Positions 4,000-4,659 of a stretch of DNA of 64,000 nucleotides are shown piece after piece. Location: contig VXTR01000068.1 of assembly GCA_009837355.1 (NCBI GenBank), positions 224,178-288,177 of the forward strand. Reading direction: 5' to 3'. The DNA is from Chloroflexota bacterium. GTDB taxonomy: Bacteria; Chloroflexota; Dehalococcoidia; Lucifugimonadales; UBA3495. The position numbers and the translations under genes were made by a program. The stretch's first letter is position 1. Every line of letters begins with the position of its first letter. Below the pieces are notes generated by a model. It saw only the letters and a program-made list of their open reading frames with translations. It made no database searches and was not told where the DNA came from.

Positions 4000-4659
4000 T
4001 CATTCCTGGTCGGCGGCGCGATTCTCCAGGGCCTTGTCCATTACCCGCTGGAAAACTTCGTAAGGCTGTGCCCCGGTGAACAGCAGGTTGTCGAACACAA
4101 AGGTGGGGATGCCGCGGATGCCGTAGCCCAAGGCTTCCTGGTACTGGTCGATAACCCGCTGGGCATAGTGGCCGGACTCGACGCGCTCCTTCAGTTCGGC
4201 GCCGTCCAATCCCACCGAGGTGCCGATGTCGGCCAGCACCGAGGGGTCGCCCAGGTCGGCCCGCCGGTCCCAGTAGGCTTCGTAGGCGGCGTGGTGATAT
4301 TCCAGGAACTTGCCCTGCTCCTGCGCGTACTCGGTGGCCTGCAGGGAGTAGAGGCTGTTGGGGGTGTAGCGGGGCGGACGCATCACGATGTTGGCTTCCC
4401 GGGCCTGCGTGCGCAGCGGGTCGGCCAACTCGTCGTCGCTTTCGCCCGGCCGTGGCTCCCGGACGCGACCCTCCTGCGGGGTGTCTGGACGCAGCAGGTA
4501 GGCCCGGCCTTCTACGGTGAAGTCGTACTCTTCCGCCAGTTTGTCGACGCGTTCCAGGCCGACGTAGCACCAGGGTCAAATATAGTCGTACCAGACGATG
4601 ACGTGCACCGGATTGGGGTCGTCGGGGTGGCTGTGCGCGGGTGGCTGGGTAGCGGTCAT
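4000..4659 (-). CDS. DsbA/FrnE-family thiol oxidoreductase, candidate selenoprotein with in-frame UGA at 4576-4578 (motif U-P-W-C)
   Basis: ORF track lists only 4000-4428. Reading upstream in the same frame gives MTATQPPAHSHPDDPNPVHVIVWYDYI[UGA]PWCYVGLERVDKLAEEYDFTVEGRAYLLRPDTPQ...; ATG at 4659, UGA replaces the first Cys of CPWC, no other in-frame stop. Confidence 0.85.
4543..4578 (-). promoter_or_regulatory. candidate bacterial SECIS hairpin immediately 3' of the UGA
   Basis: UGA-CCCUGGUGCUAC-[GUCGGC]-CUGGAACGC-[GUCGAC]: 6-bp stem (one G-U), 9-nt loop, loop starts 18 nt after the UGA. Found by eye, not folded. Confidence 0.4.

What the first reader, a model, noticed from the sequence alone, without database searches (positions are those of the whole stretch)
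4000..4659. Candidate selenoprotein: FrnE/DsbA-like oxidoreductase with UGA at the first position of the CPWC active site
Seen in sequence: the listed ORF (4000-4428) is only the C-terminal two thirds. The same frame continues upstream through ...VHVIVWYDYI-UGA-PWCYVGLERV... to an ATG at 4659, with a single UGA at 4576-4578 and no other stop. UGA sits exactly where FrnE/DsbA-family proteins have the first catalytic Cys of C-P-W-C, giving U-P-W-C. A random nonsense mutation is unlikely to hit the catalytic Cys codon (TGC/TGT to TGA) and leave the rest open. An automated caller would split or truncate this gene. Knowledge: Sec replaces redox Cys in several thioredoxin-fold families. Inference: this organism decodes UGA as Sec and uses it in a DsbA/FrnE-type enzyme encoded next to the NuoEFG-like cluster.
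Basis: partly seen in the sequence, partly recalled or inferred. Interest (0 to 1): 0.88.

Follow-up and report, generated by a model that had tools for sequence, protein, structure and literature searches.

The report
Selenocysteine FrnE-type redox enzyme (UPWC)
The gene is a real selenoprotein: an in-frame UGA codon encodes selenocysteine in the active site of a FrnE/DsbA-like enzyme, kept throughout a lineage of marine Chloroflexota bacteria and cut short by gene-calling software; selenoproteins of this general kind were already known.

Summary
On the minus strand, ATG 4659 to TGA 4000-4002 is one 219-codon frame with a single in-frame TGA (4576-4578) at the first catalytic Cys of a FrnE-type CPWC motif (U-P-W-C). 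The interpretation also holds. The genome carries tRNA-Sec, selA, selB and selD, and selD itself has an in-frame TGA. All 13 other genomes of the genus and 58 further order-level relatives keep TGA at this codon. Homologues across the phylum mostly do too; the rest have TGC or TGT, one has Ser. The frame is under purifying selection on both sides of the TGA. Synonymous change collapses just after it, where a hairpin (window 4543-4563) is far more stable than synonymous-codon controls. This bSECIS-like hairpin has G in its apical loop, is present in 126 Sec genes and gives no signal in 23 Cys/Ser homologues. selA co-occurs with the Sec form. Fold and sequence place the protein nearest Deinococcus FrnE, as a cytosolic disulfide reductase/isomerase. 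Public protein sets hold it truncated after the UGA, without its active site. "DsbA-like, PF01323, UxxC" selenoproteins have been predicted before, so this is a new, well-supported member of a known kind. Selenocysteine insertion itself is untested.

The parts
4000..4659 (-). Complete selenoprotein gene: FrnE/DsbA-type oxidoreductase, 219 codons plus stop, U at residue 28
   Evidence: PDB FrnE matches
4576..4578 (-). In-frame UGA read as selenocysteine, first residue of the U-P-W-C active site
4567..4575 (-). Codons for P-W-C, including the resolving Cys31
4543..4563 (-). bSECIS-like hairpin: 7 bp stem with a one-base 3' bulge and apical loop UGGAAC
   Evidence: predicted; comparative support; drop in Ks
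4097..4111 (-). G-I-P-T-F stretch (residues 183-187): expected cis-proline loop opposite the active site
   Evidence: invariant G183, I184, P185 and F187 in alignment A1; role from knowledge of thioredoxin-fold proteins
4722..5471 (-). HAD-type hydrolase, syntenic neighbour upstream
3402..3881 (-). NuoE-like protein, syntenic neighbour downstream
1627..3396 (-). NuoF-like protein, followed by a NuoG/FdhA-like frame without in-frame UGA

Best explanation
The gene encodes a selenoenzyme. The ribosome reads UGA at 4576-4578 as selenocysteine, delivered by tRNA-Sec and SelB, which binds the hairpin 15-35 nt downstream of the UGA. Without insertion, translation stops after 27 residues. The product is a cytosolic FrnE-type member of the DsbA family with a Sec28-Pro-Trp-Cys31 redox centre. 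In the inferred mechanism, the selenolate of Sec28 attacks a disulfide or other oxidised thiol in a substrate, Cys31 resolves the mixed selenide-sulfide, and an unidentified cellular thiol system reduces the Sec28-Cys31 bond. Shown here by sequence: the read-through frame, the recoding machinery, the conserved UGA and the constrained hairpin. Inferred: actual Sec insertion, the reductase/isomerase direction, the substrate and the reductant.
For: tRNA-Sec scores over the Rfam cut-off and has a TCA anticodon. selB, selA and selD all score over cut-off in the same genome, and selD has its own in-frame UGA at G-U-A-A-K. TGA is retained in 72 order-level genomes including the window's own. Ka/Ks within the genus is 0.024 for the 12 codons before UGA and 0.059 downstream, while Ks falls from about 1.1-1.3 to 0.33 in the 12 codons after UGA. 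Over all windows of the gene, codons 4-12 after UGA alone are strongly over-stable against synonymous resampling: -10.2 versus -4.8 kcal/mol, all 35 tested sequences. In 126 Sec genes the mean difference is -5.5 kcal/mol; in 23 Cys/Ser homologues it is -0.4. A common register pairs 82% of cells, against 24-54% when slid by 1-3 nt; pairs 15-35, 20-30, 21-29 and 22-28 exceed every shuffle; 110 of 115 unique hairpins have G in the first two loop bases. In the phylum sample selA is present in 66 of 67 Sec-form genomes but only 6 of 10 genomes with only a non-Sec form. FrnE is the top PDB match by sequence and by fold.
Against: The hairpin of the window's sequence alone is no more stable than dinucleotide shuffles (z -0.06 and 0.52); support is comparative only. 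Pairs 16-34, 17-33 and 18-32 do not exceed shuffles because their columns hardly vary. Seven order-level Sec-form genomes lack a detected selA; all are 56-87% complete. One Sec-form genome listed as 95% complete (G212) lacks it too. No protein or selenium data exist. The fold model is moderate (mean pLDDT 76.6, first 16 residues below 50).
Confidence: 0.96

Rival explanations
1. Pseudogene: a Cys codon mutated to TGA, leaving a dead gene or a C-terminal fragment.
For: Database gene calls start after the UGA and lack the active site.
Against: TGA is shared by 72 order-level genomes and most phylum homologues. Strong purifying selection acts on both sides of the TGA. No frameshift was seen in relatives.
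Confidence: 0.01
2. UGA is read as an ordinary amino acid (Cys or Trp) by code reassignment or a suppressor tRNA rather than as Sec.
For: The read-through frame alone does not name the residue, and homologues have Cys there.
Against: UGA is used as a normal stop by neighbouring genes. The genome has tRNA-Sec, selA, selB and selD. A hairpin just after the UGA is conserved only in UGA forms. Sec-form genomes carry selA.
Confidence: 0.02
3. Programmed stop/read-through switch in which the truncated 27-residue peptide or an internally started C-terminal protein is the main product.
For: Internal starts downstream are possible and were chosen by gene callers. UGA-Sec decoding is generally inefficient (general knowledge).
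Against: The stretch before the UGA and the catalytic motif are among the most conserved parts (Ka 0.027), so full-length product is selected. An internally started protein would lack the active site.
Confidence: 0.02

Closest known systems
DsbA-like selenoprotein family, form 1 (PF01323, UxxC) in prokaryotic selenoproteome lists; 'DsbA 1' of the GOS marine survey
   Same: Same Pfam domain and same Sec position in UxxC (PMC13188914, PMC9312934, PMC2398784). The GOS survey reports DsbA 1 as more abundant in marine samples.
   Different: Those lists do not mention FrnE or Chloroflexota in the searched text. The listed representative sequence could not be retrieved for alignment here.
FrnE of Deinococcus radiodurans (DR_0659; PDB 5CNW, 5CO3, 5CP1)
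   Same: Best PDB match by sequence (53 bits, residues 12-202) and by fold (TM 0.72-0.73); CPWC motif aligned to UPWC; cytosolic family.
   Different: Sec replaces the first Cys. There is no C-terminal CXXXXC motif; the only Cys in the window protein is the one in UPWC. About 22-24% identity.
SCO1869 of Streptomyces coelicolor (PDB 3GL5)
   Same: FrnE-like DsbA fold, next best protein by sequence, TM 0.70.
   Different: Not described as a selenoprotein in its listing; distant in sequence.
Rcas_1661 family thioredoxin-like (seleno)lipoprotein, NF041057 (DsbG-like)
   Same: Thioredoxin-fold selenoprotein model with a partial match to the C-terminal part.
   Different: Score 58.5 against a cut-off of 190, so not a member; no lipoprotein signal is evident in the window protein.

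Membership tests
Bacterial selenoprotein | In-frame UGA aligned to a redox Cys of homologues | tested here: met
   TGA in 126 loci including own; TGC/TGT in 22 homologues, Ser in one
Bacterial selenoprotein | tRNA-Sec, SelA, SelB and SelD in the genome | tested here: met
Bacterial selenoprotein | bSECIS hairpin just downstream of UGA with G in the apical loop | tested here: met
   comparative, not binding data
Bacterial selenoprotein | Selenium present in the protein | not testable with these tools
   needs 75Se labelling or mass spectrometry
DsbA superfamily (PF01323) | Score above Pfam gathering threshold across the domain | tested here: met
   118.2 bits against 25.6
FrnE subfamily | CP(W/F)C active site, cytosolic, nearest to FrnE by sequence and fold | tested here: met
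   UPWC motif; no signal-peptide-like N-terminus by eye
FrnE subfamily | C-terminal CXXXXC motif found in many FrnE proteins | tested here: not met
   only one Cys, in UPWC; the motif is reported absent from some FrnE proteins too (PMC8945050), so it is not strictly defining
FrnE subfamily | CDD cd03024 assignment | not tested
   CDD was not available
DsbA-like selenoprotein form 1 | PF01323 with UxxC | tested here: met
   definition from PMC13188914
Rcas_1661 family NF041057 | Score above NCBIfam cut-off | tested here: not met
   58.5 against 190

The most novel reading that the evidence does not exclude
A Sec-containing FrnE is an old, phylum-wide core selenoenzyme of Chloroflexota that has switched between Sec and Cys several times. 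In the SAR202-type lineage it is tied to the neighbouring HAD and NuoE/F genes as a dedicated redox partner of a NAD(P)H-linked complex.
Probability: 0.2. Interest if true: 0.5.

Novelty: new member of a known kind. Interest (0 to 1): 0.36.

Why it matters
The gene is systematically truncated in public protein sets, losing its active site, so a conserved redox enzyme of marine and sponge-associated Chloroflexota is hidden. It marks these uncultured bacteria as selenium users with several thioredoxin-fold selenoproteins. The many Sec and Cys forms make a natural series for asking what selenium buys a cytosolic DsbA-family enzyme.

Tried and rejected
Single-sequence folding of the SECIS region gave no signal over shuffles, and RNAalifold on the full order-level set returned no structure, because pairing registers shift by one base between subgroups. 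Synonymous resampling with Cys/Ser homologues as control was used instead. NCBIfam offered only an unrelated DsbG-like selenoprotein model below its cut-off. Literature searches for FrnE selenoproteins, and for selenoproteins in SAR202, Chloroflexota or sponge symbionts, found no report of this gene in the held open-access library; the 2-hydroxychromene-2-carboxylate isomerase search returned no papers. A promoter/terminator scan of the gene region found nothing.

Full report
Observation. The minus-strand frame from ATG 4659 to the stop at 4000-4002 is open except for one TGA at 4576-4578. The peptide around it is VHVIVWYDYI-U-PWCYVGLERV. With TGA read as U, the 219-residue product matches PF01323 (DSBA) along the whole profile at 118 bits. 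A GGAGG sits about 9 nt before the ATG. The ORF the caller sees, 4000-4428, lacks the active site. The same happens in public protein sets: the best 120 database relatives cover at most 82% of the query, and the six that were read start after the UGA.

Organism and machinery. Close relatives with names are Dehalococcoidia/Chloroflexota MAGs, one titled SAR202 cluster bacterium bin87, from the Aplysina aerophoba sponge study (PMC5649159). That paper notes that SelA and SelB co-occur in the majority of sponge symbiont bins. The window's own genome (3.25 Mb, 89 contigs, 96.6% complete) has tRNA-Sec over the Rfam cut-off, selB at 355 bits against 242, selA at 556 against 268 and selD at 382 against 125. 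SelD itself has an in-frame TGA at its catalytic position, HCAG-U-AAK. TGA is also a normal stop for neighbouring genes, so the code is not simply reassigned.

Conservation. Among 118 relatives, all 13 other genomes of the genus and nearly all other matches carry exactly one TGA in the frame. Locating the codon by alignment gave TGA in 86 of 90 loci and TGC/TGT in four. After adding phylum-wide samples there are 126 Sec loci and 23 non-Sec homologues: 22 Cys and one Ser. A paralogous Sec group (DYT-U-PFC and similar) exists in other genera of the same family. On a tree built with the catalytic column masked, Sec and non-Sec forms interchange at least six (starred branches) to ten times.

Selection. 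Within the genus, Ka/Ks is 0.024 for the 12 codons before the UGA and 0.059 for codons 13-175 after it. The part before the UGA is therefore translated as part of a functional protein. Ks is 1.11 before the UGA, 0.33 in the 12 codons after it, and 1.29 further downstream, which points to a nucleotide-level constraint just after the UGA.

SECIS. Sliding 8-codon windows along the gene, compared with synonymous-codon resampling, pick out the windows starting 4 and 5 codons after the UGA: -10.2 against -4.8 kcal/mol expected at offset 5 in the main group and -10.0 against -5.0 in the paralogues, in every sequence tested. Only the two windows overlapping them (offsets 3 and 6) show a partial effect; the rest of the gene scatters around zero. 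In all 126 Sec genes the difference is -5.5 kcal/mol; in the 23 Cys/Ser homologues it is -0.4. One pairing register, eight pairs from 15-35 to 22-28 counted from the T of UGA, is satisfied in 82% of cells, against 24-54% when slid by 1-3 bases; four of the eight pairs exceed every one of 500 shuffles. In 110 of 115 unique sequences the apical loop has G among its first two bases, and it begins 19-25 nt after the UGA. These are the general features of bacterial SECIS elements (own knowledge). In the window the hairpin is 4543-4563; its single-sequence energy is unremarkable, so the claim rests on the comparison.

Co-occurrence. In the phylum sample, 66 of 67 genomes with the Sec form have selA over cut-off, against 6 of 10 with only a non-Sec form, Fisher P = 0.0007 (genomes matched between the lists by hand). 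Phylogenetic relatedness inflates this P value. The seven order-level Sec-form genomes without selA are all less than 90% complete.

Function. PDB matches by sequence are led by Deinococcus FrnE (53 bits) and SCO1869. A predicted model (pLDDT 76.6, pTM 0.74) finds FrnE first, TM 0.72-0.73. U28 lies just before the first helix (29-45), the usual place of a CXXC motif. The G-I-P-T-F stretch, invariant at G183, I184, P185 and F187, fits the cis-proline loop. FrnE proteins are described as cytoplasmic DsbA-family thiol oxidoreductases, and D. radiodurans FrnE as a disulfide reductase whose C-terminal CXXXXC helps regeneration (PMC8945050). The window protein lacks that motif, so its regeneration must come from elsewhere (inference). 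Order OtsA-OtsB-HAD-SecFrnE-NuoE-NuoF is kept across the genus and in part across the family; whether this is a functional link is not known.

Novelty. DsbA-like selenoproteins with PF01323 and UxxC are listed in reviews (PMC13188914, PMC9312934) and were found in marine metagenomes as DsbA 1 (PMC2398784). What is added here is a well-defined FrnE-type branch in Chloroflexota with strong evidence for recoding and SECIS. It is a new member of a known kind.

Noticed in passing
L190 (own genome C74:5115-5582), in-frame TGA: A second PF01323 protein of the same genome has an in-frame TGA in YYDFR-U-PFVYNA, a UxxV motif like the 'DsbA 3' class of the GOS survey.
   Followed up: partly
L191 and L192 (own genome C83:20693, C25:47159): Two Rdx/SelW-like proteins with in-frame TGA in a CVP-U motif.
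   Followed up: partly
L194, L197, L198, L200 (own genome): Four AhpC/TSA or TlpA-like proteins with in-frame TGA (GG-U-T, APW-U-PHC twice, GVW-U-PYC), with two further TGA-containing matches listed; the genome looks selenoprotein-rich.
   Followed up: partly
L021 (own genome C39:7224-8144): SelD is itself a predicted selenoprotein (G-U-A-A-K).
   Followed up: yes
window 39103-39247, minus strand: SAM riboswitch (RF00162), 69 bits.
   Followed up: no
L188:6928-9804, minus strand, reaching into window 1-1600: NuoG/FdhA-like molybdopterin-type protein of the adjoining cluster has no in-frame UGA, unlike many bacterial formate dehydrogenases.
   Followed up: partly
L090-L110 (relatives): A paralogous Sec group with DYT-U-P(F/Y/W/H)C and, as its sister group, Cys-only CPHS/CPHC forms, found in other genera of the family and absent from the window's genus in the search.
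   Followed up: partly
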